In this document: piece after piece, positions 18,865 to 40,870 of the stretch
How the letters are laid out: the number at the start of each line of letters is the position of its first letter
Numbering within the stretch: the stretch's first letter is position 1
Assembly (NCBI GenBank): GCA_029891345.1
Contig: CM057009.1
Coordinates: 210,856,709-210,920,708, forward strand
Reading direction: 5' to 3'
DNA from: Dryococelus australis
Lineage: Eukaryota; Arthropoda; Insecta; Phasmatodea; Phasmatidae
DNA length: 64,000 nucleotides
Program-made: the position numbers and the translations under genes
The notes under the pieces: generated by a model
What the model was told of the DNA's origin: nothing
Database searches by the model: none
Seen by the model: only the letters and a program-made list of their open reading frames with translations

Positions 18865-18883
18865 ATGCATAAAGCCGATTCTA

Positions 18884-19210
18884 GCCCAACCCACATTTTC
18901 TTCGAAAAAACAAGCAATTTGAGGTCAAAATCAAGGTTTTTTACTCCAAAAACATGGTTTGAAATTTAAGAAATTAAGCATTCTAAAAATAAGCAAATTT
19001 ACACAAAATCAAGCAAATTTACCAACTTTCTTTCAAAAATATCATGCAGACTTGGCACCTTAAATACAATAATTTTTAAACTAAAATAAAGCAAATTTCT
19101 CGCTTTTCAAGCAAAATTTTCATGTTTTTTTAGAAATAGCAATTTTGTAAGCAAGCAAGCAAGTTTAAGATAAAATAAAGCAAATTTAAGACAAATTTGA
19201 GTGAAAATAT
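18884..19210. repeat. A-rich short-repeat zone at the left edge of the Polinton
   Basis: The motif aagcaaattt recurs at about 18984, 19013, 19089 and 19180, with variants and a short (caag)n run near 19150-19163. Low-complexity A-rich DNA such as this could be the terminal region of the Polinton, but no inverted partner was found. Confidence 0.4.
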
Positions 19211-19318
19211 AAAAAAATATCATTTATAGAATTTATATCTTTTCTTCAACAAAAGTAAAATACCAAGATGACTTTTTAAAGTCTACAAATAAAGAAAAAT
19301 CTGAAGCATAGCCAATAC

Positions 19319-19525
19319 TCATTCCATAATCCCAACCATCACAACAATCCTAACCATAAACATCTTATTTAAAATCAGAACATTAATTTGATCTGAAATC
19401 ATTTCTATGGATTTTTTAAAATTTTCGAAATGAACAATGTCCAGTTCTTTATCAATAAAAGTTTCTGTTTTTATAATTTCATATCCAAAATCCCGAAGTT
19501 CTAAAAGTTCTATAATTTGATCCAT
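19319..19525 (-). CDS. Small open frame downstream of the capsid gene
   Basis: A 68-codon minus-strand frame with regular hydrophobic/charged alternation lies 190 bases past the capsid stop, on the same strand and with the same AT-rich codon use. No motif recognised. It may be a small accessory gene or the decayed end of a larger one. Confidence 0.25.
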   Translation of the reverse strand: MDQIIELLELRDFGYEIIKTETFIDKELDIVHFENFKKSIEMISDQINVLILNKMFMVRIVVMVGIME

Positions 19526-19714
19526 TTAATATATAAAAAAATTTGCATATATTTTATAAAAGTGTGATACTATGAGAACATTTTTTATTAGAATTATTAT
19601 TTTTTATTTTATCAAAAATTAATAAGAAACTTTTAATGCAACCACTCAACTACGAGTCTAAAAAATTGTATTAAAACTCTGAAACCATTTCTTGTTTCTG
19701 TAAAATTGTCTACA

Positions 19715-20429
19715 TTATTCATGAATAAAATTTAAAATGTATGTACCTTCAGTGATATTTTCTTTCAAATAATCATAAGTTAAATTTTGTTGGCTAATTA
19801 AAACAACATTACAAATTGTATTAGCCTCAACTGCTTTTTTAAAATCTACACTAATTCTTATATTTGTTTTATCTTTAACTACTGCTGTTTTTTCTATACA
19901 GGAGGTCAATAACACACAAACGTCTTCATCCCCAAAATTAATAATAATTGATATTGCCAGGATAGCTTGTAGTTGACTTATAATAAAGATAATTATTTCT
20001 GTATTTTGTTCTAGAATTTATAAAATCATTAAAAGGCAGAAACATTTTAAGACAAAGATCATTATCAATATCTAGATTACAATTTCCTTTTGGAAAAATT
20101 TAATTTCTATCATTTTTAACAAAAATATTTCTTACATTACAATGATCAAATATTGAAGCGTGCATATATTGCTAGGCGTGATTTTTTCTATTAGTTTGGA
20201 AAACCAAAATTACAAAACCAGGCATGTCAATTTTCAAATTATTAAACTGATCTTTTGTACCAAAATTAAAAACGGTTGTCCCAGCAGGGTCTTCTTTTTC
20301 TAAAAATTGCCAATACTTAAAACTAATATGAAATTTAGGATTTTTATAAATTTTTTCTTTAATTGCAATTGATGTGTTAGCTTCGTATTCAATAATAGGC
20401 CACAAAATTTCTAATTTTTCAATAACAAT
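19715..20429 (-). pseudogene. Polinton major capsid protein, C-terminal part
   Basis: Minus-strand frames resemble the second half of Polinton double-jelly-roll capsid proteins: a conserved L-E-I-L-W-P strand, an aromatic F-K-Y-W-Q-F block near 20290-20320, a G-F-V-I-L-V-F-Q-T block near 20200-20230, and an F-D-H-C-N-V-R-N block near 20115-20145. After frame breaks come the R-I-S-V-D-F strand near 19845 and the end at 19715. Known role: hexameric capsomers of an icosahedral virion. The N-terminal part is on the other side of the LTR-like block 20430-22387, and the flanks join in the same frame once that block is removed. Frameshifts near 19920-20160 break it further. Confidence 0.65.
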
Positions 20430-22387
20430 TGACGCCGTTGGGTGAGACACGAGACGAATGATGACACATATACTTACTGGTAATTTGGGCACCAGTGGTG
20501 CTTCCCAATCACCGCACTATTGAGACTCGGGGTTCTCAGTGATGCTGTGGGTTCTGTGTGTCTGTCTCAGCCGTGCGTACTTACAAACCCGTAGGCAATA
20601 CTAAACCTTTTACTAAACATTGCTGGAAATAAACACTTAATAAAATATATGTGGCTAGGACACTATCACTACTGAATAAAAGAGTTAAGTTCAATGTAGA
20701 CTTGTTTTTATTGTTATTATGCATACACATCAACATGCCAATGAAATTATGATTATCTCTGTCATGACTAGCCAATTCCACTTGGGTGCTCCCCAGCCCA
20801 CAATTACTCTAGCACATGCCAAGATGGATGATCTCAACGAGGTGCGTGAAAGCACAGCCTTCATAAGGAAAGAGGGCCAACAGCCGCTAGGGTGGACTGA
20901 CGGTTTTTCCCTAAAGACAGGACACGGTGAATTACAAATGAAACCCTTAATATATATTAACATGTGTGATTACCCTGCATAACTAATGCAAACTTGTCGG
21001 GGCTCGCCCTCTAACACGTGGGTAGTGTGGTGACGGCCTATACACAGAGCCGACTAGGACGGGAATAATTGCACCTTACACTAATTACAAAATTACATAA
21101 ACCCTCAAAAGATACATGAAACAAGATGGGACACGAGATGAGTATTCACAATAAACACACAAAATGTGTGAAAACAAGTTTATATGGCGCGGATGCCACT
21201 GGATGAACTTCATAGCGAACCATGTGGTGCAGGTGAAATTGCAATATTCCTCAGTGAAAACGGTAAATTAAATTCAGACAAAATATTATTCTGTTAGAGA
21301 CTATTATTCTCTTTACGATTGAAGTGGTTACAGGCGTGTGACATGCCTGATGGTGGTTAAAATCAACATTAACGTGACCGCATGGTTTAGTACAGAAGCA
21401 TCAATTTACGTGAAAAACACATTGAACCCTGAATAAAATTTAACATACAACTGTTAATAAATTATTGCACATACAATGTTACATAAATAAGCTCTCAAAT
21501 GCAATGCTGGCATATACGTAGACTCTGCGTCTGTCTGCCACATGGTTATACGTGATGTTGCCGTAAAATATTCAAACACGAAAAATTACTCCCAAATACA
21601 TACATAAAAACAAAGCCCTTGAAACTGCGTGTAGCAATAATGAAGAAGTTACAATGAAACGCCGTAAATACAGGCGGACGGCACCTGATTCAAGTTGCTC
21701 GGGTCACGTGACCTCTCCGACATATTTCTCCTCCTCCTCCCCGATAAAGTTAAAATGCCACAAGGGCGCAAGAAATTAATAAAGCGGAAGCACAATGCTG
21801 GGGAAAATGTCTAGCAAAAACGTACGCAAGCAAAGGTTAACCGGTAAACTAAATAGACTATGGATACCTAAATCAGTGAACAAAAGCTGTAGTGCATACA
21901 TGACAGTGTCTTACCTCGCCAGCTCTCCTCAACACACTGTCCAGAGACAAATGTCGCACAGACCTACAATGACCACCTACGGGGTTCACATAAGCCGAAG
22001 CGCTATGCACGCCGAGTAAAATATTTTATTATAGAAAATAAAATGGCACAAATTAAATTTAATATTGTTTTACATTTTTATAATTTTCTTATGAATTTCA
22101 ATATTATTTTAGTGTCTCTTTATGACTGCGTTCATGCCAGAATATTAAGCGTTCTTAATCTCGGTGCCGCGGGCACTTTGAATTTTATAACCAAACAATT
22201 TAAACTTGAACACATTTTAAGACATATTAAACACTGAAAATACAATAGAACACATTTTAAACTGAAAAATAACATTTATATGATAGTTCAAAATTATTGA
22301 CCTATTTGAATATATGCGGAGACACGTGACACGTGCATGGTGAGCACCATCATGGGCTCTAGTGCTGCTGGCTGTTAGCAGGTGTCA
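20430..22387. mobile_element. LTR-like insertion inside the capsid gene
   Basis: A 1958-bp block, visibly richer in G+C than its flanks. It starts TGACGCC and ends GGTGTCA (6 of 7 inverted) and is bounded by CAAT on both sides (20426-20429 and 22388-22391). TG...CA ends, a 4-base duplication and no coding capacity fit a solo LTR of a gypsy-type element. I did not find an internal region, primer site or second LTR. Frames at 20719-20982, 21795-22019 and 22043-22237 have no recognisable motif. Confidence 0.55.
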
Positions 22388-22830
22388 CAATTTTACCTGA
22401 ATCAGCATAGCTTTTATCAACCAAACCATCTGCTTTTTTTAGTTTCATAAACAAATATACAATTGTTATGAGATGAATTTCTAAAAAAAAGTGATTTTAT
22501 AACCACCTTTCCAGTTAACTTCATTATTATTGTGAATAAAGCCAAACAAGTATCTTAATGGATACACTATTTCATTTATTCTATCAATGGAAAAAAATTA
22601 GAACAAACATCTACATTTTCTAATTTTTCGTATTTTGCCTCCCCTCCAGTTTTATCTCTTTTTAGTATGCAATATTCTTCGAAAACATAAGCATCGTTTG
22701 AAAAAGAAAAGCTATCTCTTATGGGAATATCAAACTTGATCCTATTATTGTAAACATTTCAATTCCCCTTCGTTTGATCTGTTGGGGGGAAAGTTTGTCT
22801 CTCAAAACTCTCAATGCTTTTATGACTCAT
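22388..22830 (-). pseudogene. Polinton major capsid protein, N-terminal part
   Basis: The minus-strand ATG at 22830 opens a frame with an early aromatic/proline segment and an I-K-F-D-I-P-I-R-D block typical of the first strands of Polinton capsid proteins. A strand near 22590-22680 follows, then a P-L-(R)-Y-L-type block after a frameshift near 22570. A stop near 22760 and one or two frameshifts break it. It runs up to the CAAT duplication at 22388, beyond which the LTR-like block begins. Confidence 0.55.
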
Positions 22831-22857
22831 TTATAAGTTAAAAATGTTTTTATATAA

Positions 22858-23850
22858 ATGAAGGATTCACGGGGTGTTTCTCGAGTGCAATTGCTCATCG
22901 AGAAGTATTGAAATTATAAAAAGAACCATGCGGCAGAATATGGAGAAAAAAAAAGCAAGAAAAAAGATCTACCATTAATTCTTGAATTACAAAATATTGG
23001 CAAAAAAGTAGAACAAGTGAAGAAATCAAAAATTTAATAACAGCACTAGTACCTGTTGCTGCAAAAAATTTAGATTATCCACCAACACCAGAAGAAAATT
23101 CATTTGAAAGAGAAGTATCCCCAAAATCACCAATGGGTGTTACTCCACTAAAAAATTTACCACCTATAGCAGGTGTTTCTACTACATAAATCTCGGAAAA
23201 TATATTTCCAAAAATATTAAATGTTATTAATGATAAATTTGGTTTAAAAGGAGATGAGCAAGGTTTTAAAATCGGAGATACAAAAGTCAAAATAGATAGC
23301 GATTTTCTATTTGTCAAAGATAAAAAATATGAATTAACAATATGCCTTACTAATTTTTTTACAAAAAGTAAAAAACATGATCTTGTAGATAAATCCACTA
23401 GTGAAGATAAATTCACTAATGAGGACTACAAAAATTATGCAGAAATTGTTTTATTAACAAATGCAGCACATCAAAATTATGATCCAACTATGAGCATACC
23501 TTCGAGTATAGGTTGGAAGTATAATGAAATAATTAAACCATTTATCATGAACATATAAAAAATTCTCCTAGATCTAGAGAAGGTATAAAAAAATATTATA
23601 GTTTGCCAAAAGAACATATTTGGATGGACGATGTTAGAAAATTAATCCATACATTGTTAATTATTTATGGTGAAGAAAATGCTGGAAATAATTATTACAA
23701 TGAAAAAGTAAGTATAATGAATATGCTAAACAATAAATTTCCTGACTTTGTTGTTACTACCACCAAAGGAATTCCATGTCTAATAAGAGTTTTAAATGTT
23801 ATTCCGCACTCATTTTGGGATTCTGAACACCATGGAAAGGCATTATAAAC
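22858..23850 (+). pseudogene. Polinton conserved protein of unknown function
   Basis: From the ATG at 22858, in divergent orientation to the capsid gene with a 27-base gap, broken frames give a basic N-terminus, a proline-rich linker (about 23080-23190) and an F-K-I-G-D-T-K-V-K-I-D block near 23263-23300. A Y-x-L-T-(I/P)-x-L block and a Y-T/N-x-E-D-Y-x-N-Y-A-E-I block near 23425-23450 come next, then an L-P-K-x-x-x-W-M-D-D-V segment at 23610-23640. I recall this domain order from arthropod and other animal Polinton proteins without assigned function. It sits directly upstream of the PLA2-like gene, as if part of a virion-protein block. At least five stops or frameshifts. Confidence 0.5.
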
Positions 23851-24150
23851 TGGGCATTAAACAATTTAAATTTGCTCGAAATGCATTTGCCAGGTTATAA
23901 TTATTGTGGACCATTTACAAAATTAAATCAAAGATTAGAAAGAGGAGATGCAGGAGTGAATAAACTAGACGAAGCTTGTAAATAGCATGATATTGCTTAT
24001 AGAGACCACAAATATTTAAAATCTAGGCATGAAGCTGATAAAATTTTACAAAAAGATAAAAAATAAATAATGTTAAATAAATATACTCCAATTGGAGAAA
24101 AAATTGCTCCTGCAGCTGTTGCCTCAACAATTATTACAAAAAGAAAATAA
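23851..24150 (+). pseudogene. PLA2-like (parvovirus VP1u-type) protein
   Basis: The frame reads a calcium-loop-like motif (YNYCGPFT, about 23896-23919) and then the helix with D-E-A-C-K, a TAG at 23983-23985, and directly after it the H-D of the catalytic dyad (23986-23991), A-Y, and a charged helix ending at TAA 24064-24066. The same frame continues with an alanine-rich tail to 24150. This is the arrangement of secreted and parvoviral phospholipases A2, a domain also seen in Polinton-like viruses, where it is thought to act on membranes. The two in-frame stops make it inactive here. Toxin-type or entry function is inference only. Confidence 0.6.
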
Positions 24151-24208
24151 GATTTTGGAATTAAAATGTTTTATTGAATATATGTATTTTATATTTTACT
24201 TATGTAAA

Positions 24209-24600
24209 TGAAGATAAAAAGCTTAACTTTCGATATACCCATTGATCAATTAAGAGATTTGGGTATAGATTAATTTTTAACAAAAGATCAACTTGAGCAA
24301 AAAAATAAAAAAATTCAAAGAAGGCAAAGGTTTCTTGCTAACCTTGGCATTGCCAATATTTAAAAAAAAAATATTAAAAGAAAAAGCCGGCAATGGTTTA
24401 CATCATGCAGGAATTATCCCTCTCATAGTTGCTGCTTTAACTGGCCTTGGTGTTTTAGTAGTAGTAGTAGTAGTAGCTACTTCAATTTATAATTCTGTTG
24501 AACAAACTAAAAAAAAATAAAAAAGAATTAGAAGAACAGAGACACGATTTAGCAATGGAAAACAAGGCTGGTAGTGGTGTAGTTGCGAAAAAAGGAGGAT
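24209..24600 (+). pseudogene. Hydrophobic virion-core-like protein upstream of the protease
   Basis: A short start (ATG 24209) and a lysine-rich stretch lead to a glycine-flanked hydrophobic helix of about 25 residues (24410-24490: IIPLIVAALTGLGVL then a run of valines). An E-E-Q-R-H-D-(x)-A-M-E block and a glycine-rich basic tail follow. In Polintons a segment of this composition precedes the protease, sometimes in the same frame, and it resembles small basic/hydrophobic core proteins. The valine run comes from a GTA repeat. Three frame changes occur. Confidence 0.45.
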
Positions 24601-24995
24601 GGTCAAAAAAATTTTGCTCCATTGTCCAATATCAATATTGAAAAATATGTAAAAAATAAATAAATATTAAAAATTTCAGAAATGTTTATATGATTGACAA
24701 ACTACCAAAAAATATGGTCAAAAATGAATGTGCCATGGTTAATTTTGATATTTCAGCAAATCCTGGCACTCATTGGGTTTGCTATTTTAAAGGAAACCAT
24801 TATGTATATTATTTTGACTCATTTGGAGGCAATATTCCTAATAATATAATTAATTATTTAAAAAAAAATAATGTTTATTACAATGATGATAGAATTCAGA
24901 ATTTTAATTCTGTTATCTGTGGACATTTATGTTTAATTGTTTTACACCTTTTTCGAGAATTTTAAGTTTAGCGATATAATTTCTATGTTATTAAA
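24601..24995 (+). pseudogene. Adenain-like cysteine protease (Polinton PRO)
   Basis: The clean part (24690-24965) contains the adenovirus-protease pattern: histidine in P-G-T-H-W-V-C-Y (about 24762-24785), the acidic residue in Y-Y-F-D-S-F-G (24807-24827), and the cysteine region C-G-H-L-C-L (24918-24935). The N-terminal strand is readable upstream of 24690 in another frame, from about 24620, so a frameshift near 24660-24690 has cut the gene; a stop at 24963-24965 truncates the C-terminus, which continues for about 30 bases. Known role: maturation cleavage of virion proteins. Its neighbour upstream is the likely substrate-type core protein. Confidence 0.7.
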
Positions 24996-25079
24996 TGAAA
25001 GATATATTTGGGAAACCATTGATTGAATCTTTAAATAAAAACTTTGATAATATTGCTGAAGATTTTTAAAAAATATGGA

Positions 25080-26075
25080 CATTAAAAATGCAATTCAAGT
25101 GTTTCTTCTTTACAAAGTGAGTTAAGCACTTGTTTTGGCTTTACATAATGGTATGTTTCTTTTCTGAAGCGAAGAATTGTTAATATAGCTGACCCCATTG
25201 ATGGAAAAGATGTAGTTAACACAATATTTTAAAATTAAAAAATGGCTGATTATGCTTTAAAAGAAGATGTAAATTTACAATTCAATAACACTATTGCTGA
25301 TTATATACAACTAATAAATAATGCAAAACAGACATAAAAAAAAAGAGATGTAGATTCAAATATAAAACTATTGTTGCTGATTATGCATTAAAATAAGATG
25401 TTGAATCACAATACAACACTAGTGTTTCTGATTTTAAAACATATGTAGATTCAAAATATAATACCATTGTTTCTGCTTTACGAGATCAAATAAGTAAAGT
25501 TTTTGTTGACACAATGGACTATGTTTCTATTCAAAATCATAGAATTAATAATATGGCAGATCCTGTAGATGGCAAAAATGCAATCAATAAAAGATATTTC
25601 GATATATATACACACATGCATGCATTACAAAATAATGTTGAATCAAAATACAACACTATTGTTTGTGATTATGCATTAAAAACATATGTAGATTCAAGAA
25701 TCAACACTATTGCTTCTGATTATGCCTTAGCATCGGATTTAGATTCAGTATCTACGGCATTAAAAAAGAATATAGATTCAAGATACAATAATAAATAAAT
25801 AGATGATAAACAGCAAAATTTAAGTCAATCAATTGAAAAATTTAAGAATGGAAAACCTCATATATTTTATTTGCGTGGAAAGTGGAATAAAAATAATAAT
25901 GTTTTTCGCATAGACGATGTTATTTTTTTTTTGATGGATTGTACTGTATAAAATCATTTCTGATAATTTATCCGATGATAACTGTTACTAAGGGAAGTAC
26001 AAAAATTGATTATAGTAAACCATTTGATGTTAACAGAGGTAAGTTTTTAACTATTAAAATTAAAAATAAATAAAT
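25080..26075 (+). pseudogene. Fibre-like repeat protein
   Basis: The region encodes about six copies of a 17-residue repeat of the form N-T-I-V-x-D-Y-A-L-K-x-x-V-D-S-x-x (clearest at 25650-25780). These are interspersed with an A-D-P-V-D-G-K-(N/D) junction motif (25556-25580) followed by N-K-(R/Q)-Y-F-D, a pattern also found in trimeric tail fibres of phages and in fibre-like proteins of Polintons. The C-terminal segment (25845-25960) has no recognised head domain. Frames shift at least four times. The longest clean frame is 25514-25798. A receptor-binding spike is a reasonable inference, unproven. Confidence 0.5.
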
Positions 26076-26140
26076 AATCTAATTATTTTGTTGATGGAAT
26101 GTTGACCACAACAGGAATACTCGTAAAATACAAAGATTAA

Positions 26141-26153
26141 CTCTCTCTCTCTT

Positions 26154-26195
<42 letters not shown>

Positions 26196-26204
26196 ATATA
26201 TATA

Positions 26205-26297
<93 letters not shown>
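26141..26297. repeat. (CT)n then (AT)n microsatellite
   Basis: CT repeats (26141-26194, one interruption) pass directly into AT repeats (26195-26297). Located between the fibre-like gene and the integrase. Confidence 0.95.
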
Positions 26298-26300
<3 letters not shown>

Positions 26301-26303
26301 TAA

Positions 26304-27408
26304 ATGGAGAACACATGCTGTTTGAAATGCAAGAAAGTCACTGAAAATAATATAAAAAATGAAAATACAACAATTGGGCGATTAGTACAGAAAAGTATAT
26401 GCAATTCTAAAACATCAACATCCTTTAAAAAAAAAAAAAAAAATTAGCTAAATGTGAGAGCAGGAATAATCAATGAATTATATAAAACTGCACGAAAAAA
26501 TTTTCCAAGAAGAAAAGTTATTTCATATGGCACTGATGATTTGTGGCAAATGGGTCTTGTAGAAATGGATATTGGAAATTTAAAAGGTATAGCTCGCATA
26601 AATAAAGGCTATAAATATTATGTCAATTATTGATGTTTTTTCAAAGTTTGCATTTTCTTTACCAATCAAAGATAAAACAGCAAAAAATGTAACAAATGTT
26701 TTAAAATATTTTGACAAAAAGAAAACCAAATAATTTACAAAGTGACAATAGCTTAAAATTATATAATAAAATATTTAAAGAACTTATGGAAAAATAAAAT
26801 ATAAATCATTTTTTCTTCTTTTTCTAAATTAAAATCTAGTGTTGTTAAAAGATTTCTTCGAACTTTAAAAAATATAATGTGGAGAAAATTTACTTTGAAT
26901 GGCAATTATAAATGGACAAATTAGTGAAAGACTACAACACAAAGTACAGCACTATTGGTATTTAGCCAATTGAAGTTAATAAAAAAATTGAAAAAGCAAC
27001 AGTTAAAGCAGCCTATGCTACACAAAATTTATTGCAAACCAATTTTGTGTTTACTAAACCAAAATATAAAGTTGGAGATATTGTTCGCGTGAGCAAATTG
27101 AAAATTTTTTTTTAAAAAGGTTGTACTGCTAATTGGTCAACAGAATTGTTTACTAGTTGTAAAGTTTTAAATTTTGATATACCAACTTACAAATTAAATG
27201 ATACAAAATGAGAAGAAATAATGGGTAGTGTTTATGAATACAAAATTATGAAAACTAACTATCCTGATGACTATTTGGTCAAAAAAATTTAAAAACTAAA
27301 GGCAATAAAGTGTCACCTAAAGCAGACTCTGCTGCGCAAATTTATGTAAAGTGGTTGGGTTTTGATAATTCTTACAACTCTTGGAGTAAGAAAACAGATG
27401 TACTGTAA
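26304..27408 (+). pseudogene. Polinton integrase with C-terminal chromodomain
   Basis: The ATG at 26304 opens a C-x-K-C zinc-binding-like N-terminus. A Y-x-x-A-R-K-N-F-P-R-R block follows near 26480-26510. The first catalytic region (26535-26575) reads L-W-Q-M-G-L-V-E-M; family members have D where G stands (26553-26555). A V-I-D-V-F-S-K-F-type strand follows at 26625-26650, then the second aspartate in Q-S-D-N (about 26735-26746). The glutamate block has lysine in its place (26847-26849: V-V-K-R-F). The end (27300-27408) is a chromodomain, with Y-V-K-W-L-G-F-D-N-S-Y-N-S-W visible. The chromodomain is known in Polinton integrases and could target chromatin. Multiple frameshifts; dead copy. 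Confidence 0.75.
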
Positions 27409-27439
27409 AATGCTTTATATTTTATTTATAATTAGCTTC

Positions 27440-28292: not shown

Positions 28293-28429
28293 TTTTATAT
28301 GCGAAAATATGCGCAAGTGAAAATGGCAAGTTGTAATAAGTGTTTTTATTAAGATTCTTTTTTATGAAGAAAATGAAAAATTGAAGAAAATAATTTTACA
28401 AAATATAGCAGATTTTTCATTGCCTCTTA

Positions 28430-28778: not shown

Positions 28779-29386
28779 TTTTATTTACGAAACTATGCGT
28801 AAGTGAAATTGGTTAAATTTTAGTAAAATTTTTCAGTTGCTGCATTATCTGCAAAAGATTTGATGTGGGGATTAGAAATTTGATTGAATTTACTATGAAA
28901 TTGGTTGAAATTTAGTTAAATTATTGAGTTGCGCCAAGATCTGCGATAGTCTTCTACTGAATTTACTAAAAAGTGTACATAATTGAAAAAGACAAAAGGT
29001 TTATGAGCAAGCTAATGCTGTGCCAGGGACCTAATGTTTTTGGAGTTTACAGATATCTCTATTGTGCCAGGGACTCCATTTTTAACTTTTCCTGCCATAT
29101 TTTAGGACCAGCAAAACTCCAATTGGAGAAACCCATCACCTCATCCACCGGCCGGCCTTTTTTTATTTATTTTTTAGTGGAGAGGTGATGGATTTTTTTT
29201 TCTTGTACTCTCTCATAAGCTGCAGGTGCCCTGCACCATATGAGGAATACACACATCATTTTTTGCATTAATACTCGTATACAGAATATATGGGCAAGAG
29301 AAATGAAATGGTTTGGCCCAAATTTTGAATGGTTTTGGTGATAATTTAATATTGTGGGCGCCTTTCAACACAATTAAATTTCCTTT
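28779..29386. other. Non-coding AT-rich spacer in the Polinton
   Basis: No conserved frame seen. A short phrase (gtgccagggac) occurs twice, near 29010 and 29064, and a CCGG-rich palindrome lies near 29148-29156. Part of this stretch looks unlike the AT-rich Polinton flanks and may be a small insertion. Confidence 0.35.
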
Positions 29387-29452
29387 CAACTAAGGATCGA
29401 ACCCCGAATCTCGAGTTACAAACCAAGCACCCAACCACTGAGCCAAAGTGGC
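29387..29452 (-). repeat. tRNA-like sequence (SINE head or tRNA pseudogene)
   Basis: The minus strand reads an A-box (TGGCTCAGTGGTTGG) and, 38 bases after, a B-box (GGTTCGATCC) in the right order and spacing. The middle resembles the anticodon arm of tRNA-Thr(TGT) with a TTTGTAA loop. The acceptor stem does not close, so it is not a functional tRNA. A tRNA-derived SINE head is the best guess; I saw no body or tail. Confidence 0.5.
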
Positions 29453-29455
29453 TGG

Positions 29456-29930
29456 GTGAACGAGAAGCTGATAAAAATTCTGCATTTGGTGAGCTACAAT
29501 GTTAATAATGGGAGTGTTCGATGCTTGGCAAGGAAATATAATTTTATTCACTCTTGCTGCGTGAATTCACAACTGTGTTCTCTGCTAGGAGTAAACTTTC
29601 TGCATCTTCACTTGTCGAGAGCAGCATGGCTGAGATATCCACATTGCATGATAACATATTTCCTGTTGCGGACAGAGCACACTGCGAGCTCAACGAGGAA
29701 AACTTGCACCACCAGAACACACCGCAGTTCGGTTGCAAACGAGAGTGTAGATATGGTTTTTTTTCTCACTACGAGAGTGTGCTGAAGTTTAGTTGTGGAC
29801 GTGAGTGTATATAGCCTTTTTTCTATCACTGCAAGAATGTGCTGCAGTTCAGCAAATGATGTAGATAAGCTAATTTGTAAAATTTCTTGCTAGTCGCAGC
29901 TGCGCAACTACACAAATATTGAAATCACAA
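29456..29930. other. Short-repeat region without a gene
   Basis: Near 29738-29860 a phrase of about 50 bases (a-c-g-a-g-a-g-t-g-t-g-c-t-g followed by a T-rich run) is repeated two to three times with changes. More G+C-rich than the surrounding Polinton, so possibly a foreign fragment with the tRNA-like block. Frames here show no motif. Confidence 0.35.
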
Positions 29931-29939
29931 AAGAGAGCG

Positions 29940-30612
29940 TTAAAATATGAAATTTTTTATTTGATTACGATATTGCCCACTGTTCATTTTTCTACTCAAA
30001 TCTAATGTTAAAAAAAAAAACATAATTTTTGTTCCAGCACAAGGCAATATCTCTTTAAATTTCTCAAAACTCATATCTCCTCCAACAAAATCGCAATATA
30101 TAAATTTCAAATTTGTTTCATCTTGTCGAAAATTTGTGTTATCTCATACTAATTGCTTGGGGACTCTGGAATATGTCTGCACAAGATAAAAAACATTGCT
30201 ATTTTTATGCCAACCTCTAGTAAAATATTTGCAGACTACATCTTGCTCATCCAATATTACAGCATCAAAAATTACGAGAGAATTATTTTCACATTGATCT
30301 AGTGAAACCATTTCACCATTGCTACTTTAAAAATAAGCCATTTGTTCATTGAATATTCTAGATATAACTTTAAAATTGTCTTGTAATTGAATATATTTTG
30401 GTTGATTCAAAGTTTTCGAGCAAACATAGAGTTTATAAAAATTTAGCCATCCTGTCTTATAAAAAAAAATTAATTATTAAATTTGTCTTCCCACGGTTGC
30501 TTCGTCCTACAATCAACCCTCTAATATTATTAGGCAATAATTCACCTTTTTTTTTATTCTTGGAAGTTTCCTCAGAAATTAAAACATCAACACCCCAGTC
30601 AACTTTTTTCAT
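29940..30612 (-). pseudogene. A32-type DNA-packaging ATPase
   Basis: The minus-strand ATG at 30612 opens a frame with a Walker A loop, G-R-S-N-R-G-K-T-N, near 30500-30525. The Walker B strand (I-F-D-A-V-I-L-D-E) lies near 30260-30295 after frame breaks. A sensor-type segment near 30130-30210 and the F-V-G-G-D-M-S-F-E-K-F-K-E-I block near 30055-30100, characteristic of Polinton/NCLDV packaging ATPases, follow; the stop is at 29940-29942. Known role: pumping DNA into the capsid. The Walker B acidic pair is partly retained. At least three frameshifts; dead copy. Divergent with the minor-capsid-like gene, 25 bases between starts. Confidence 0.7.
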
Positions 30613-31336: not shown

Positions 31337-31429
31337 GATGTTTAAAATATTATACTATTTTATTAGAAAGTATATGGGGAACTGCTTGTCCCCCTTAAGA
31401 GGTACATATAATAAAATTGTAAATTTTGA

Positions 31430-34400
31430 TATCCATATGGCAAAGTATCTATTTTATTTTCTAGTATAATTCTCTTGTTATCACAAGGACTCAGAGCTAT
31501 TTTATTAACCTCTGCTGTATATATTTTGTGTTTTTCTCACTCCTTATCAAATTCATTGTTCTATATTGAATTTTCTCATCAAACAAACAATTCTTATAAT
31601 CTTCAAATGTAATTCTCTTATTAATAAAAACACATTTTTTCACACCTTTAGATTTTTTGTTTTCTTTATCGTCAACACTATATGAATACATTTTTGTTCA
31701 TAAATCAACAAATTTGTTCATTATTTTCCCATTACATTCGTCTTTCATTTTTCCAAAAACTTTTTTTATTTATTTGTGGCATGTTATAGATATCGTCTTT
31801 TGGATAATCACTTGTATCAAATTTTTTTATCATCAACTTCATGACTTCATAGAAATCTTTTGTTTTTATGTTATAAATGTATGAATCTGTATGTGGATAG
31901 CATAGTTAAATTTTATCATCATATTTTGGCTTCACCACTTTACGATGGAAATCATACATCAATTCTTTCTAAATATCCAAAATTAACATGCCCACATATA
32001 TTGGCTTATTAAATTTTACATTAGTTTTCTCAATGTGAATATCTGCAATATTCTCATTAAATATAGTACTCTTTTGAAATTTGGTTTTGCTACCAATTTT
32101 TCACATTTTTCAGCATCTGATACTAATTTTTTATCTACTCTGTTTCTTATATTTTCCATAGTTTTGCCAAACACAGAATTATTCATGAGCTTACAGAAAT
32201 TTTTTTTAAAATCATTTTTAGCATTAGTTATCATTGTTGTGTTTAAATTAAATATATATACCTTTTTAACCAATCAGACTGATCAAACATTATTATATAT
32301 TTTTGTATGTTTTAATCCATTATTTAGACACTGTTTCAAGTTGCGATAGTGAATTACATACTTTTGTTTGTTATCTAAAGTTGTTAATAATTAAGATTGA
32401 TTTGTTTTTGGAACTACCTTATTTTCAGGACAAAAAGGTAGATCTTTATGCAAATTATGTAGTTCTTGTGGATATTCTAAATCAACCTCTAATATATAAC
32501 CATCTTGTGAATCACCTTACAAATTTAATATTTTTTCACTCCAATAATCTAAATCATATAATGCATAGTACACCAACTCAAAATCACCACATGGTAAATG
32601 CTGCGACATTGCATAACCATATAAATTATTCACATTGAGATAAGCTAAATAATTTGATTTTTAATTTGGATTAAAATCCTCTAAATATTTGTTATTAGCT
32701 TTAACATATCGCTTACAACATTGCGAAATACCACCTCGAATTCCTTTTTCAATCATTAAAATCATATCATAGTTGCGTAATAAATCTAGTGGTTGTTTAG
32801 TAATTTTTAACATTGCATTCCATGATAAACCTGGTGCTGTAAAATACCATGCAGGATCTAAATCATCAGAATTTATTCATGTGTTTCAAATTTTTTTGAA
32901 TATATCTGCTAACAATAATACATTACTTTTTAAATACAAATCATCGATTTCAGCAAGATTTTTAATATTAAATTGGTTCCATATATTTCTTGCTTATTTG
33001 TATTCATCTTCATATAAACTATTTTTGTTTAATTTATTGTAAAATTCACTCTTTGGTGGAAGTTCAGTTTCTTCAAATTTCTTCCAACTATCTATATAAT
33101 CTTATGGGTAAACAGCATTTTTTCTAACTAAATCAACTTGAACTTCTGGAAAATGTTTTTGTGTGTTTTTCATGTGATATTTACTTAAATTAGATGATAA
33201 TTTATCTAAACTACTGGCCATAAATTTAAACGTGTCTATAAACCTCATTTTTAAATTTTCTGCATTTTTCCCAAAAGTTATACACTTTTCTACATTATTT
33301 GTTACTAAATCTATATTTATATCATCATATCCCAACTCTTTAATAAATAAATGTGCATCATATCCAGCTATGTTATGGAAATAAATTGGTACCAAATTTG
33401 GTCATTTTAATTTTAGATTACAATTATTACATAACGGATTAATAAATTTTCCACTTATGTGATCATGATGAAGTACTTTTTTATTTCCTATGTATAATTT
33501 TTCTTCTTTTGTTAATGGGTGCGTGCATTGGCTCAATTTGTGAATAAATTTCACCAACTTCCTCTACTTCTCTTTGTTTTTGTTTGTATAAATATTTTAT
33601 GAGCATCTGGGCCACGATATACAACTGGTGGCTTATACTCACCATAAGCAGATACAATATAATAGAAAAAACCAGATGCTTCATGCAACTGATATTTCAT
33701 TGTATATGATTCGTCATTCGATTTTAAATAAATGTTATTTATTTTATCATTAGTAAGTTTATATTTTTCTTTGAGTATTTCTTTGTACAGACCATTATTG
33801 ATATCATCTTCTATTAAAACTGGATATTTTTTAATAAGGTTAAATTTCTAAATTTCTTCTAGATTTGGTTTAGTTGTTGATATTTTATTTAAAATTGACT
33901 CAAAATTTGCATATATTATGAATGGGACTTTCGTGGTGCGTTTTATATTTTAAAATTTTATTTGTTCTCCTTTTGAAGGCAATTGAATTTTTACTGCTTC
34001 ATTTTTCAAGCAATCTTCAGTATGTTTATTTAATTTTTCTTGAGAAATAAAAGAATTGAAGAGACATATCGCATATATAAGTTTTATGTTGTTTATTATT
34101 TTTTTTGTGCTGAAACTAACCTTGATAAATCTTTTATCCAACAGTAATGCGAGTTTATATCACTTTTGAAATAAAGTAAATTTATGTGCTTATATTTTTT
34201 ACTTTTTGTAAGTTTTAGTGGATATACCATGGATTCATCTTTAATAGAGAATACATTTATAGATATGTCAATTTGATTTTCTATTTTTGGTATATCATCA
34301 ATTTTAATTGGATATTCAATTTTATCTAATGCTTTCTCAATGTTATGACCTACATTTTTATATTTAGGTACTCTTTGTGGGTCATTTTCTGCAGGAAACA

Positions 34401-34790
34401 GTGCATATTTTACAGTTCCAAGAAAGCATCTTTGATCATTGTTTCTAACATTTATGCATGGTTTTTTATTCTTAATCGCTTCTGGTAGTTCAATATATGA
34501 TGATTGATGTATTATACTTATTTATTGCTAATTTTATTCCAATTACTCTATATAAATTCCATTCAGAACCTCTTCTTTGAAATTCAGATAATTATGTGAG
34601 TAATTCCTATTTTGTAAATTTTTATTATTTCTCCTTCGTTTAATATTGTATGATTATAAGACTGAAATGTAAATAATTCTACTTGATTATTTTCCTGCGT
34701 GCAACAATTGGTATATAATTTAATGCTGGTTTTCACCCCTCTAATGTTCCTAAGATAATCACGTATCGTCTCAAACATTATTTTTTACTG
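31430..34790 (-). pseudogene. Polinton family B DNA polymerase, main part
   Basis: The minus-strand frames run from about 34790 to 31430 in the order of protein-primed polymerases. They are: an N-terminal region with an N-D-Q-R-C-F-L block (about 34420-34450); a C/H-rich D-H-I-S-G-x-F region with C-N-N-C-N near 33420-33480; exonuclease motif H-N-I-A-G-Y-D-A-H-L-F near 33340-33375; motif A near 32620-32645, where asparagine (32634-32636) stands for the catalytic aspartate; motif B with L-M-N-N-S-V-F-G-K-T near 32155-32190; and motif C with P-H-T-D-S, where histidine (31891-31893) replaces the first aspartate of DTDS. A C-terminal K-R-I-I-L-E block ends near 31440. Two catalytic losses and many frameshifts show it is dead. 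Its 5' part lies beyond the CR1 insertion. Confidence 0.8.
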
Positions 34791-35247
34791 AAGTTAAAAA
34801 TTTATTATTAGGCTGTACTAAATTAAAGGAATGAGGGAATATGCCCGCCACAGACGGACTACAGGTTGTGTTGTTCCGTATTTAAGGTTGTTTTGGCTTG
34901 TGATTAGTTCTAGCAATAGGTTTAAATATAGGTGGAGTAGTAGTTTGAGGTATAATTAGAGTTTTAAGATTTAAGATTAGTGTTTTATGTGGTAATTAGT
35001 TATAAGGAGGGAGTAGTGTCCGATTGCGTGCACGAGGCCGAGGCCTTTGTTATTGTACGAGTGTAAAGTGTATACGGTGTAAGTTAGGCTAGTTAAGAAC
35101 GTGTGTGTATACGTAGATATTTGGTGTATGTTATAAGGGAGAGTAGTTTTAGTTTTAAGTTAGTTAAACCTTTTTTTTTTAAGAGAAAGGGTAAAAGAAA
35201 AGAAAGAAAAAAAAGGGAAGAAAGGGGAAAAAAAAAGGGAAAAAAAA

Positions 35248-36781: not shown

Positions 36782-36850
36782 CAATCAGTTAGAAGCAAGG
36801 AAACGGAAGGGGAGAGAAATGGAGAGGATAGCATTGATCAGGCTGCAGGG

Positions 36851-39685
36851 GTGGAGATAGGAGGTAAGCAATGTAGGATGGTAAAGCAGAGTACTAGTAT
36901 AAAGATAATGGTGGTGAACTGTAGGAGTGTGTACAACACGCTGGAGGGTTTCTGGGGAAAGGTTGAAGGATATGGGGCGGATATAGTGGTAGCTGTGGAG
37001 ACTTGGTTGACTGAGGAAGTACTGGACATAGAGTATAGGCAGGATGAGTTCACCATCTTCAGAAGAGACAGGGATGGGAGAGGAGGAGAAATAATGGTGT
37101 GTAAGGAAAGGGCTAAAAGGGGCGGTAGAATGGGTTAGTGAGGATAAGGTAATAGAAATTAAATTGAGTGGTAGTAGTAATAGGAGTATTACTTTGCTGG
37201 CAGCGTATAGACCACCAGGACAGGGATGGCAGGCAATTGAGATGATCAAGAAGAGGGTCGATAGACTAAAGGACAGGCAGTGGGTTGTTGTAGCAGGGGA
37301 TTTGAATATGCCAGGGGTGAAATGGGTAGAGGGTGTAGAAGGAATGGGTAGCATAATGCTGAGAATGGCAGCACAGTTAGTGAACAGAGGATTAGTCCAG
37401 ATAGTAGAAACACCTACAAGATAGAATGACGAGGGTGTTGGGTCAGTGCTGGATGTGGTGTTGGTCAGACCAAGGAATGCTGTAGTCGGTGCAATAGTAT
37501 TGGATGGTATAAGCAACCATCATATTCCGGTTGTAGAAATTGGGATTGGCAGGATGAGAGAAGTGCAAATGACAGAAAGGTTGGTGTGGCAGTATGGGAG
37601 AGGAGACAAGAAGGGGGCAGAAATCTTCCTGAGAGACAGGTTTAAAAAATGGTCTATGGAGGAGGGTGTAGAGGGGTTGTGGAGGGAGTTTAGAAGATTA
37701 ATGGAGGTCATGTTGGAGAAATTTGTGCCACTGAAACGGTTACGGGCTGGGGGAGATCCCCCATATTATGGACAGGAGATTTTGAAAATGAAGAAGTGCA
37801 GAAAATTACATGCCAAGTGGAGAAATGAAGGGATGATAAGATCTAAAGAATGAATGAAACAAATGGGTAGGGAGCTTGAAAGGATGATCAAACAGGCAAA
37901 GAATGTATTTCTGAGGAACATGGTGGAAGAAGGCAAATGCAAGGAATGGAGGAAATTGTTTAGGTATGTTAGGCGGTTAAGGGAAGGAGAGGAAGGGATC
38001 CCTCTGCTAACAGGAAGGGATGGTAGGCATGCGACAAATGACCAAGAAAAATCGGAGATGCTGCAAGGACAGCAATTGTCAGTGTTTGAGGCAAACGAGG
38101 GTTGGAATAGGGGGACAAACAGGATTCGGGGGGTGTATAGTGAGTTTAAGATGAGGGAGTGGGAGATAGAAATGGTAATTAGGGGTTTGGAGAGCAGTAA
38201 GGCAAGGGGGACCAGATGGGATAGGAAACGCAGCACTAAAGTTTGGTGGCAAGGAGTTGGCGAAATATTTAGAAGTGCTGTTTAAAAAGTCCTTAGGAGA
38301 GGGTAAGTTACCACAAGATTGGAAGGATGCTATGGTGGTACCTATACACAAGCAGGGAGAGGATAGGAGGAGGCCTGGCAGCTACAGGCCGGTGAGTCTC
38401 ACATCAAGTACAGGAAAAGTAATGGAGAGGCTGGTGGTGCAGTATGTGGTGAGGGTAATGAACAATAGGAATTCGTTGGAGGAGTCCCAGCATTGTTTCA
38501 GGAGGGGTTACTCATGTGAGACTCAGCTGGCTGGGTTATTAGAGGATCTGGTGCAGGTAATAGGTGAGGGGAAGCAGGTGGATGCCTGCTTCATAGATTT
38601 TGAGAAGGCATTCGATAAGGTGCCCCATGGAACATTGATGAGGAAAGTGGAGGCGCTGATACCTGACAGGAGGGTAGTGGAATGGATAGGGGACTTTCTC
38701 AGGGGACGAAGGCAGAGGGTGAAAGTGGGGGAGGCAATATCGGAGGAAGAGGTGGTTACGTCAGGGGTACCACAGGGAAGTGTGCTGGGTCCTTTGTTAT
38801 TTACCATAATGGTAAATGACATGGGTTTGGGGATTAGAGGAAAAATCAGATTGTTTGCAGATGATTATGTTGTATATGCTGAGGTGGGAGAGGGGGGCGG
38901 AAATTTGCAGGCGGACATTGATAAGATATGGTTGTGGACCAGAAAAAATAAAATGAAGATAAATGTAGGAAAAACTAAGGTAGTGAGGTTCACAAGGAAG
39001 AAGATGATAAGCAGGGACATGTACAGATGAGAGGGACAAGAGATATAAGAAGCAGCAGAATATAAGTATCTAGGGATTGTACTGCAGGGAGACCTCAGGT
39101 GGAAAAAACAGGTAGAGAGGGTGATAAGCAAAGGGAAGAAGGGCTCTGGGTATGCTGGGAAGGGTGCTGAATGGAGTCAGCTGTGAGGTGAAGGAGAAGG
39201 CGTATGGAACAATGGTACAGCCAATGTTAGAATATGCTGCAGCAGTATGAGACCCGTATGTGGAGGTGGAGGTGCGAGCACTGGAAAAGGTGCAGAGAAA
39301 GGCAGCAAGATGGGTGAAGGGTAGGTGGAGAAGGCAAGGGCAGGATGATGAGGAAGAAGGGAACTATAGGCCATCTGTGATGATGAAAGAAATGGGGTGG
39401 AGCTCATTGAAGGACAGGAGGAAAGTTGAACGGTTAGTCAGAATGTTCAGGGTGGAGAATGAAGGAGGATGGGTAGGGCTACACTGCAAGCTAAGTAAGG
39501 GGGTGTTTAGGGGAAGAGGAAACAACAGTGAGAAGCTTCAGAGGGTGTGGAGGAGAACGGAGCGGGGTAGGCAGTCCATGCTTGTGAGGTCTGTGAGGGA
39601 GTGGAATGTGTTGAGGGAGGAATTGGTATCTGTGAGAGGGGTTGGTAAATTCAGGAAGGGAGTGGAAAAGGAGTTGGTTGGGTGA
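36851..39685 (+). pseudogene. CR1-like ORF2: APE endonuclease and reverse transcriptase
   Basis: The endonuclease starts near 36905 (V-N-C-R-S), has E-T-W-L near 36997-37008, G-D-L-N at about 37299-37310 and the S-N-H-H block near 37510-37520. Breaks are near 37110-37140 and at TAG 37422-37424. A linker leads to the RT (clean 38257-39030): P-V-S-L near 38390, F-I-D-F-E-K-A-F-D-K-V near 38591-38623, G-V-P-Q-G-S-V-L-G-P near 38765-38795, and the catalytic F-A-D-D near 38857-38868. After a TGA at 39028-39030 the thumb and basic C-terminus continue in shifted frames to 39685, ending K-E-L-V-G. Known role: target nicking and target-primed cDNA synthesis. Catalytic residues are intact, but stops prevent a full protein. 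Confidence 0.85.
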
Positions 39686-39731
39686 AGGAGAGTTGAGAGA
39701 GCTCGCCACTGGCCGGTAGCCTAATTGCGAG

Positions 39732-39757
39732 TGTATGTATGTATGTATCTATGTAAT
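39732..39757 (+). repeat. TATG-type 3' tail of the LINE
   Basis: Four to five tatg/tatc units directly after the LINE 3' part. Short microsatellite-like 3' ends are typical of CR1-group elements. Confidence 0.6.
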
Positions 39758-39769
39758 TTGAGGTTATGT

Positions 39770-40269
39770 GTATGCTTGCATAATATTGTATCGAATTTTC
39801 AATGTTATATGTTGATATCCTATTTTTAAAAGCTGCATTAACTCTGCAATTTTCATTGGTTCTTCTATAACAAACACATTAGTAGAATAGGGGAAGATTT
39901 GTTTTTATCTTGTTTATATCATTCATTGATATTGGCATCGGCTAAAGGTAATTTTGTTAAATTATTCTTTGTTCTCCATTCTGTTACTCACTTACTTTTA
40001 TCTCTAGGTTGCATGAAAACATTAGTAGAAAATGGGAAAATTTCTTTCAATTGTTTTTTAGCTTTTCTATATTTTATAGTGTCATTTGAAAAGGGTAAAT
40101 TTGTAAAGTTTCTTTTTCTTTGATGATTTATAATAAGTGGTATAATAGCTGCAATTAAATCAGCTTTCCGTAGCTTGTGCAAATATTTTAGTTCAAATTT
40201 TCTACCTATATTTCTTAACTCTCTCACTGTCTTTTCGCTCAACATATGATTTATCTTTGAAGACTCCAT
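39770..40269 (-). pseudogene. Polinton polymerase, N-terminal SAP-like part
   Basis: The minus-strand ATG at 40269 opens a 93-codon frame with a SAP/Rho-N-like helix pair (T-V-R-E-L-R-x-I-G-R-K-F-E-L-K-Y-L-H-K-L-R-K-A-D-L-I), a known N-terminal module upstream of the polymerase in many Polintons. After a stop near 39988 the same strand continues with a helical linker to about 39770, where the CR1 element starts. It therefore looks like the 5' part of the polymerase gene 31430-34790. The SAP-like domain probably binds DNA. Same AT-rich codon use as that gene. Confidence 0.55.
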
Positions 40270-40380
40270 ATTTGTTTATTTAAAGAGAAAATATTCTAAT
40301 TACAAAATAAAACATACAAGAAAAATATATAGTGGAATAGCATCGTAAAGATGTTTAAATTACTGGGAATTAATATTTAA

Positions 40381-40870
40381 CTACTTGTTGAGACTATAAT
40401 TCTTAAGATATTCACTAAAACAATTTTTACACATACTTGTATGTTGATCCTTACACAATTTATTATAAGAAAATAATTTTATACATTTATTCTCATTACA
40501 AACTATACATGTTTTTATTGGATAATTCTCCTTTTGAATTTCATTTAGAATATCTATTGATGTGCTGTGTGATCTAGTTTTTTTTATGCTTTTCGAGATA
40601 TCCATTGCAAACATATTTTCCACATTCGCATAGAATTTTCTCATTTTTTAGCGACTTCTATCATATTCACTAAAGCATATTTTGCATTTTGTTGTATGTT
40701 TGTCTATAGTAGCTTTGTGGGGATAAAATGAATCAATAGATTTATTCTCATTACATACTACACATGTCTTTCTGTAAGAATCATGTTGAATTTCATTTTT
40801 ATTGTACGATTTAATATTTTTATGCTTTTTGAGAGATTGTTTAGAAACATATTTTTCACGTTCGTCTTCT
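40381..40870 (-). CDS. Tandem zinc-finger-like module, two copies
   Basis: Minus strand. Each copy has a basic K-x-S-K-S-I-K-K lead, a Ser/Asn-rich linker, then K-T-C-(V/I)-V-C-N-E-N-K, a spacer, and H-T-(T/S)-x-C-K-x-C-F-S-E-Y. This is a C-x2-C...H-x3-C-x2-C finger. Copy 2 is 40381-40644 (87 codons, ending in a proper TAG), copy 1 is about 40665-40870. A stop and a frame change separate the copies. The DNA copies are clearly similar, so this is an internal duplication. It lies upstream of the SAP-like part in the same direction and is probably a nucleic-acid-binding extension of the polymerase or a separate small gene. Confidence 0.45.

What the first reader, a model, noticed from the sequence alone, without database searches (positions are those of the whole stretch)
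18880..40870. Virus-like Polinton with an unusual accessory set (PLA2-like, fibre-like, two BRO-N genes)
Seen: one AT-rich block carries capsid, minor-capsid-like, ATPase, protease, integrase-chromodomain and protein-primed polymerase genes, plus a PLA2-like protein, a repeat protein with phage-fibre-like motifs and tandem BRO-N genes. Known: the core set defines Polintons/Mavericks; BRO-N is typical of large DNA viruses. Inferred: this lineage carried tools for particle attachment, membrane passage and gene regulation, so it may have been transmissible like adintoviruses. The combination is the most system-like signal in the window.
Basis: partly seen in the sequence, partly recalled or inferred. 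Interest (0 to 1): 0.8.

Follow-up and report, generated by a model that had tools for sequence, protein, structure and literature searches.

The report
Decayed virus-like Polinton in stick insect
A broken copy of a virus-like mobile element sits in this stick-insect genome; its membrane-lipase and BRO genes belong to a large family of related copies, and many of those also carry a tissue-dissolving protease gene that seems not to be described for such elements.

Summary
Confirmed with corrections. 18860-40869 is a broken Polinton/Maverick in what is almost certainly Dryococelus australis. Its left end, AGTAGA at 18860, is shared with 5 of 20 fetched copies whose flanks differ; its right end is lost. 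A LINE and a 1.7-kb repeat interrupt it. PLA2 (31 bits), BRO-N (56 bits) and PolB pass Pfam cut-offs on the window's own pieces. Capsid, integrase, ATPase and the second BRO-N pass only in relatives from the same genome. The fibre protein is motif-level only; protease and minor capsid stay unproven. The accessory genes are a regular part of a very large repeat family. A younger relative pairs a hemopexin-type matrixin with an open-frame capsid gene. PLA2 in insect Mavericks and BRO-N in some polintons are already published; I found no matrixin-bearing Polinton in the papers searched. PLA2, protease and most pieces of ATPase, polymerase and integrase suggest past purifying selection; fibre does not, BRO only weakly. 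Transmission remains inference.

The parts
18860..18960 (+). left terminus, starts AGTAGA; outer part of what is, in one other copy, a terminal inverted repeat of about 360 bp
   Evidence: homology to 4 of 20 fetched copies starts at 18860 and to a fifth at 18859, flanks differ; inverted pair 12.7 kb apart elsewhere, 88% over 364 bp
19322..20516 (-). major capsid protein gene, later part, in pieces (19322-19525, 19718-20017, 20175-20516)
   Evidence: 61% and 59% aa identity to the open-frame double-jelly-roll protein in L043; window piece alone 13.7 bits, below cut-off
20689..22391 (.). 1.7-kb repeat inserted in the capsid gene (not part of the Polinton)
   Evidence: 80% match in L016 at another position; other copies match the window on both sides but not inside it
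22579..22758 (-). capsid gene, first part
   Evidence: 50% aa identity to the start of the L043 capsid frame
22986..23845 (+). N-terminal part of the PLA2 protein, three pieces, no known family
   Evidence: L024:7778-8416 holds the first two in one frame; L040 and L022 hold the last and PLA2 in one frame
23827..24108 (+). parvovirus-type phospholipase A2 domain: YNYCGP piece 23827-23982; HDIAY motif in the next piece, after a stop
   Evidence: PF08398 31.3 bits; 57.7 bits in the whole-genome scan, which reads through stops by itself
24281..24517 (+). small protein with hydrophobic stretch, candidate membrane-active capsid-core protein
   Evidence: same place in sister copies; no family
24660..24962 (+). 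adenain-like cysteine protease
   Evidence: PF00770 15.8 bits, below cut-off; dN/dS 0.31
25065..25795 (+). repeat protein with phage-tail-fibre motif
   Evidence: PHROG 2710 E=1.1e-6, controls no better than 0.019; internal repeats
26448..27405 (+). retrovirus-type integrase with chromodomain, broken
   Evidence: Chromo 20.5 bits, below cut-off; sister copies rve 38.0 and 40.8 bits
27443..28204 (-). BRO gene: BRO-N, middle, DUF3627 tail, in three pieces
   Evidence: PF02498 55.9 bits, PF12299 31.1 bits
28515..28688 (-). second, partial BRO-N
   Evidence: 20.0 bits, below cut-off; sister copy L010/L015 42.3 bits; tandem repeat 28169-28326 / 28656-28812
28973..29940 (.). segment of unknown nature in the accessory slot
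   Evidence: matches L015, L016 and L024 only, of 20
29943..30612 (-). A32-like packaging ATPase, in pieces
   Evidence: 65-89% aa identity to the L016 frame, which scores Pox_A32 27.3 bits
30638..31267 (+). conserved protein, candidate minor capsid protein, one stop inside
   Evidence: conserved between ATPase and PolB; dN/dS 0.43 and 0.20; no convincing family and no PDB match
31366..34784 (-). [quoted passage not shown]
   Evidence: PF03175 30.9 bits on 33105-33401; PF02945 29.7 bits in a related frame of L033
34956..39750 (+). LINE retrotransposon inserted between PolB and the SAP/Rho_N gene (not part of the Polinton; bounds approximate)
   Evidence: RVT_1 109 bits, PHD 34 bits
39767..40275 (-). 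SAP/Rho_N-type gene
   Evidence: PF07498 30.3 bits
40384..40869 (-). zinc-finger repeats resembling endonuclease VII; last recognisable Polinton sequence
   Evidence: PHROG 1035 E=7.8e-7; internal 59% repeat

Best explanation
The block is one old, broken integration of a Polinton (Maverick) lineage that amplified heavily in the ancestors of this stick insect. Inferred working of the ancestral element: protein-primed PolB copied the linear genome between terminal inverted repeats, and the integrase-chromodomain protein inserted it into host chromatin. Capsid, protease and A32-type ATPase built and filled particles. The PLA2 domain opened a host membrane during entry, as in parvoviruses, and the fibre-like repeat protein served attachment. 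BRO genes acted on viral or host DNA as regulators. Shown here: most gene identities, a conserved gene order, a real left terminus, insertion at different sites, and a purifying-selection signal on PLA2, protease and most pieces of ATPase, polymerase and integrase. Inferred: particle formation, the role of each accessory gene, and spread between individuals. The stretch beside BRO is a variable accessory slot that holds extra BRO genes in some copies, a matrix metalloproteinase in others, and both in a few.
For: Families. The same genes recur in the same order in the 20 fetched stretches, apart from truncations and a second arrangement in 6 of 20 (L022, L026, L028, L031, L032, L033), where the polymerase block is inverted next to BRO. 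Terminus shared by 5 of 20 copies with different flanks and one inverted terminal pair. Copy number: DNA searches scored only 40 of 6501 and 40 of 7575 candidates, the window included; Bro-N, PLA2 and matrixin family searches scored 150 each of 6492, 11228 and 1850 candidates, and each listed match passes its cut-off. Pooled pairwise dN/dS: PLA2 0.36, protease 0.31, integrase piece 1 0.40, ATPase pieces 0.29, 0.37 and 0.58, orf30.6/31 0.43 and 0.20, PolB 0.43 and 0.47, DUF3627 0.49; control stretches in three frames 0.50-0.97.
Against: Fibre dN/dS is 0.88, BRO-N 0.70 (0.53 against the window copy alone), BRO middle 0.73, capsid pieces 0.55, 0.58 and 0.81, the 24281 protein 0.78, PLA2 N-part 0.78 and 0.39, integrase piece 2 0.63: no clear constraint for several of these. 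Margins are modest: the wrong frame at +1 gives 0.48 for PLA2 and 0.50 for one PolB piece, and one of the three control stretches overlaps the N-part of the PLA2 protein. No target-site duplication was found at the one inverted pair examined. Protease, chromodomain and fibre stay below curated cut-offs. No exogenous relative was found with three queries. The AlphaFold2 model of a related capsid protein is of low confidence (pLDDT 47.5).
Confidence: 0.88

Rival explanations
1. A purely intragenomic transposon: capsid, PLA2 and fibre genes are leftovers, and spread was by replicative transposition within the germ line only.
For: Very high copy number; capsid, fibre and the 24281 protein show little constraint; no viral contig matched.
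Against: PLA2, protease, ATPase and orf30.6/31, needed for particles or entry, show dN/dS of 0.20-0.43, apart from one ATPase piece at 0.58; a younger relative keeps an open capsid frame.
Confidence: 0.3
2. The accessory genes are chance insertions of other repeats or host genes next to a plain Polinton.
For: The block does contain two foreign inserts: a LINE and a 1.7-kb repeat.
Against: PLA2, fibre and BRO recur at the same relative place and strand in sister copies. PLA2 and matrixin hits lie within 15 kb of each other 6 times, 0.2 expected.
Confidence: 0.04
3. A mosaic of two or more nested Polintons, so that the gene set never existed in one element.
For: A second, more diverged PolB relic abuts on the right (41088-43000); two gene arrangements exist in the genome.
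Against: Single sister stretches of 10 kb carry PLA2, fibre, INT, BRO, ATPase and PolB together (L016, L020, L021, L023, L029).
Confidence: 0.08

Closest known systems
Sf Maverick 1 and 2 of Spodoptera frugiperda (PMC5803895, passages read)
   Same: ATPase, integrase with chromodomain, weak adenain-like protease match, PolB with endonuclease-VII similarity, and a protein with parvovirus-type PLA2
   Different: in the passages I saw no BRO-N, DUF3627, fibre or matrixin is listed; 'metalloprot' does not occur in the main text
Adintoviruses (definition read in a passage of PMC11071296)
   Same: PolB, rve integrase with C-terminal chromodomain, adenovirus-like virion genes, animal host
   Different: the OTU-like N-terminal domain of PolB and reciprocal hexon BLASTp similarity were not tested; the window copy is a broken integration
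BRO-N in polintons, and the Oxyrrhis marina PLV (PMC12721341, passages read)
   Same: BRO-N domain as accessory gene, near the packaging ATPase in the Oxyrrhis element
   Different: there BRO-N is fused to VRR-NUC and a tyrosine recombinase is present; here BRO-N goes with DUF3627 (or T5orf172 in some sister copies) and the integrase is rve-type
Matrix metalloproteinases of baculoviruses and other insect viruses (recalled, no call)
   Same: a matrixin encoded by a virus-like element of insects
   Different: found here beside Polinton genes; absent from the window copy

Membership tests
[quoted passage not shown]
   PF03175 30.9 bits, cut-off 25.8
Polinton/Maverick | rve integrase with chromodomain | tested here: met
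   sister copies rve 38.0 and 40.8 bits, cut-off 32.6; Chromo 20.5 bits on the window piece, below its cut-off of 25.1
Polinton/Maverick | A32/FtsK-type packaging ATPase | tested here: met
   L016 frame 27.3 bits, cut-off 22.8; the one window piece scanned matches nothing
Polinton/Maverick | adenovirus-type cysteine protease | tested here: inconclusive
   PF00770 15.8 bits, cut-off 21.3; conserved position and dN/dS 0.31
Polinton/Maverick | double-jelly-roll major capsid protein | tested here: met
   PF21738 97.9 bits in L043 and 39.6 in L037, cut-off 27; window piece 13.7 bits, below; predicted model of a relative too poor to use
Polinton/Maverick | penton / minor capsid protein | tested here: inconclusive
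   30638-31267 is a conserved candidate; no convincing family and no PDB match
Polinton/Maverick | terminal inverted repeats, AG start (AG start recalled) | tested here: met
   AGTAGA end shared by copies; one inverted pair 12.7 kb apart, 88% over 364 bp, one of its two ends altered; window copy keeps only the left end
Polinton/Maverick | 6-bp target-site duplication (recalled feature) | tested here: inconclusive
   one inverted pair examined: flanks differ, but its left end is altered; not testable for the window copy, whose right end is lost
Adintovirus | PolB with OTU-like N-terminal domain | not tested
   no profile or reference compared
Adintovirus | hexon recognisable by BLASTp against adintovirus hexons | not tested
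   no reference sequence at hand
Parvovirus-type PLA2 | calcium loop and HD catalytic motif | tested here: met
   YNYCGP piece and HDIAY piece in the window, separated by a stop; together in the L018 frame
BRO family | BRO-N domain | tested here: met
   55.9 bits, cut-off 25.6; second copy 20.0 bits, below, but 42.3 in a sister copy
Phage-type tail fibre | fibre N-terminal domain | tested here: not met
   PF03906 17.2 bits in the window and 19.4 in L034, cut-off 25.2; motif-level PHROG match only

The most novel reading that the evidence does not exclude
Stick insects host a Polinton lineage that captured a secreted matrix metalloproteinase with hemopexin domain and expanded BRO genes in tandem, giving a virus-like element equipped to cross membranes (PLA2) and basement membranes (matrixin). 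Twelve of 150 scored matrixin hits have 524-residue open frames without stops, 7 of the 12 at 118.2-118.5 bits; the one stretch examined next to such a hit carries an open capsid frame. So the lineage moved recently and may still be active or infectious.
Probability: 0.35. Interest if true: 0.75.

Novelty: new variant of a known kind. Interest (0 to 1): 0.5.

Why it matters
Polintons stand between transposons and viruses. A genome with a very large family that carries entry-type (PLA2), regulatory (BRO) and perhaps tissue-breaching (matrixin) genes, in old and in younger copies, is a place to test whether animal Polintons really travel as viruses, and how insect viruses and Polintons trade genes. 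The host is a critically endangered species whose genome paper leaves 1.56 of 2.17 Gb of repeats unclassified (PMC10268593, passages read); part of these may be Polinton sequence.

Tried and rejected

Terminal inverted repeat within the window: none found by repeat search or BLAST. TCTACT near 41247 was looked at by eye as a right end and dropped, since its flank does not match the left flank.

Matrixin in the window: no tblastn match better than E=0.2. BRO relatives in the protein database: none from two queries. PDB by sequence: nothing for the capsid relative, orf30.6/31 or fibre; for the window capsid piece only unrelated rows at E>=0.6. Capsid structure model: too poor for a fold search, so none was run. 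Co-occurrence of whole-genome hit lists is weak because only 40-150 of thousands of candidates are scored: 7 of 15 list pairs had no co-occurrence within 15 kb, among them BRO with the PLA2 block, BRO with the terminus, and PLA2, the PLA2 block, matrixin and the terminus with PolB. An unbiased sample of copies anchored on PLA2 could not be fetched, so the share of copies lacking BRO is unknown. A search for the fibre in the own genome did not complete.

Control found wanting: the stretch 22789-23040, used as non-coding, overlaps a frame that in L024 continues into the PLA2 protein; without it the control range is 0.50-0.81.

Papers: no paper held both 'polinton' and 'matrix metalloproteinase', none four of five of maverick, polinton, baculovirus repeated ORF, insect, metalloprotease; two wider term sets were swamped by unrelated papers. 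The adintovirus paper and two polinton reviews are not held.


Full report
Where the window lies. It is G000:C17:210856709-210920708 in a 3.4-Gb assembly. A protein search returned two Dryococelus australis proteins, one on a contig of 326569885 bases, exactly the length of C17. The published genome of that species is 3.42 Gb in 17 major scaffolds with N50 262.27 Mb (PMC10268593, abstract and passages read), and C4 here is 262277254 bases. The paper names Scaffold_4 as X. C17 is the fourth-largest contig among those whose lengths I saw, so the window is probably X-linked; that is inference.

What is there. All genes were read as stop-to-stop pieces. Left to right: a capsid gene on the minus strand (19322-20516 and 22579-22758), split by a 1.7-kb foreign repeat; then on the plus strand a PLA2 protein (22986-24108), a small hydrophobic protein, a protease, a fibre-like repeat protein and an integrase-chromodomain gene; then on the minus strand a BRO gene with BRO-N and DUF3627, a partial second BRO-N and an ATPase; then a plus-strand conserved gene (30638-31267); then a minus-strand PolB, a LINE insertion, a Rho_N/SAP-type gene and zinc-finger repeats up to 40869. 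GC is 0.27 in the Polinton part, 0.47 in the LINE and 0.37 in the flanks.

Strength of each name. On the window's own pieces PLA2, BRO-N, DUF3627, PolB and Rho_N pass Pfam cut-offs. Chromodomain, second BRO-N, protease, capsid and T7-type fibre do not. Relatives from the same genome lift capsid (97.9 and 39.6 bits), ATPase (27.3), integrase (38.0 and 40.8) and second BRO-N (42.3) over cut-off; sister PLA2 frames reach 31.6, 50.2 and 56.0 bits. The fibre gains from a PHROG match (E=1.1e-6) that one reversed and three shuffled controls do not reproduce, but two of three sister pieces do not match that model.

It is an element with a real end. Homology to 4 of 20 fetched copies begins at 18860 and to a fifth at 18859, in a search that started 3.4 kb further left, while the sequence outside differs. 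A whole-genome search with 18860-19320 scored 40 of 2713 candidates, and two of them form an inverted pair 12.7 kb apart on C6 that is 88% identical over 364 bp. I found no target-site duplication at that pair, one end of which is altered. The window copy has lost its right end; a more diverged PolB relic follows from about 41088 (57-58% DNA match to sister PolB; 50% over 54 aa).

The accessory genes belong to the family. Of 20 ten-kilobase stretches, taken as the 20 best-listed matches to the INT-BRO block apart from the window itself, 20 have BRO, 19 integrase, 15 fibre, 14 PolB, 11 protease, 10 PLA2 and 10 ATPase. Ends of stretches and deletions explain part of the misses, and the sample is biased towards INT-BRO by construction. 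At least 5 of 20 have two or more BRO-N stretches (L015, L022, L028, L032, L033). Genome-wide, 7 pairs of same-strand Bro-N neighbours lie 0.8-0.9 kb apart among the 150 listed. Two sister stretches show another BRO type: a BRO-N of 56 bits in L033 and a T5orf172 domain of 39.6 bits in L028. In a search of 5.8 billion proteins the capsid of L043 found five relatives: two fragmentary D. australis gene models, one 73% identical protein on an unnamed 1.5-kb contig, and two at 25-26%.

Beside BRO, 10 of 20 stretches carry a matrixin: between BRO and the ATPase in L017, L019, L021, L024, L025 and L029; between BRO and the inverted SAP-PolB block in L026, L032 and L033; in L034 no ATPase lies within the stretch. 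PF00413 gives 55.5 and 56.0 bits in two frames, cut-off 24. The window has none; it carries a second BRO-N and a segment of unknown nature there instead. Genome-wide 150 of 1850 matrixin candidates were scored, all over cut-off; 12 of the 150 have a 524-residue open frame without stops. Host matrixin genes may be among the 150. Next to one of the 12, a 2.2-kb stretch shows a matrixin tail with hemopexin (36.6 bits) tail-to-tail with a 386-residue open capsid frame; the other 11 were not examined. Matrixin and PLA2 hits fall within 15 kb of each other 6 times against 0.2 expected. I found no paper that pairs polinton with matrix metalloproteinase in the held library.

Selection. I pooled pairwise dN/dS over aligned copies in the coding frame, in the two other frames, and in three stretches taken as non-coding. 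These controls ran 0.50-0.97, or 0.50-0.81 without the one that overlaps the PLA2 protein's N-part. Lower than every control: orf31 0.20, ATPase pieces 0.29 and 0.37, protease 0.31, PLA2 0.36, PLA2 N-part 2 0.39, integrase piece 1 0.40, PolB 0.43 and 0.47 (4 and 7 sequences), orf30.6 0.43, and barely DUF3627 0.49. Inside the controls: capsid 0.55, 0.58 and 0.81, matrixin 0.57 and 0.78, the third ATPase piece 0.58, integrase piece 2 0.63, SAP 0.67, BRO-N 0.70, BRO middle 0.73, hydrophobic protein 0.78, PLA2 N-part 1 0.78, fibre 0.88. Wrong frames of real genes can also be low: 0.48 for PLA2 at +1. The second BRO-N (one pair here; 2.01 over three copies) gives no information. Comparisons with the window copy alone gave BRO-N 0.53 against 1.00 and 0.87 in the other frames. 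Decay after insertion pulls values towards 1, so absence of a signal is weak evidence.

How it probably worked. The gene set fits a linear protein-primed genome that integrates by a retrovirus-type integrase and is packed into adenovirus-like particles; PLA2 would open an endosomal membrane, as proposed for parvoviruses and Polintons (PMC4642659, passage read). BRO-N is described as a DNA-binding domain first named in baculoviruses, with regulatory roles proposed (PMC12721341, passage read). A matrixin could help cross basement membrane, as proposed for insect-virus matrixins (recalled). Gene identity, order, insertion and past constraint are shown to the degree given above; the rest is inference.

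Known or new. PLA2 in insect Mavericks and polintons (PMC5803895, PMC3671162 and PMC4642659, passages read), BRO-N in some polintons (PMC12721341, passage read), and abundant Mavericks in other stick insects (PMC5691397, passage read: 3.13% of the Timema cristinae genome) are known. New as far as the held papers go: the BRO-N plus DUF3627 and T5orf172 set in an rve-type insect Polinton, the variable accessory slot, and the matrixin. I class it as a new variant of a known kind.

Noticed in passing
41088-43000 (-): A second, more diverged Polinton PolB relic abuts the right side of the block.
   Followed up: partly
34956-39750 (+): LINE with a PHD-finger ORF and a reverse transcriptase, GC 0.47 and strong GC skew, inserted between PolB and the SAP-type gene; similar ORFs lie in L025.
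   Followed up: partly
18502-18861 (+): Tc5/Tigger-like transposase DNA-binding ORF that ends where the Polinton begins, so the Polinton may have inserted into it.
   Followed up: no
20689-22391: 1.7-kb repeat that sits inside the capsid gene here and, at 80% identity, between fibre and integrase in L016.
   Followed up: partly
3683-5164 and 9532-11004: Direct duplication of 1.5 kb at 88% identity, 5.8 kb apart.
   Followed up: no
L022, L026, L028, L031, L032, L033: Second gene arrangement: the SAP-PolB block lies inverted next to BRO or matrixin, in the place of the ATPase.
   Followed up: partly
L028:5313-6118, L033:5223-6394: BRO-N genes of another type, with a T5orf172 domain following in L028 and a similar frame in L033.
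   Followed up: partly
L043:3-1160: Open-frame double-jelly-roll capsid gene next to a hemopexin-type matrixin in a younger Polinton group of the same genome; described only.
   Followed up: partly
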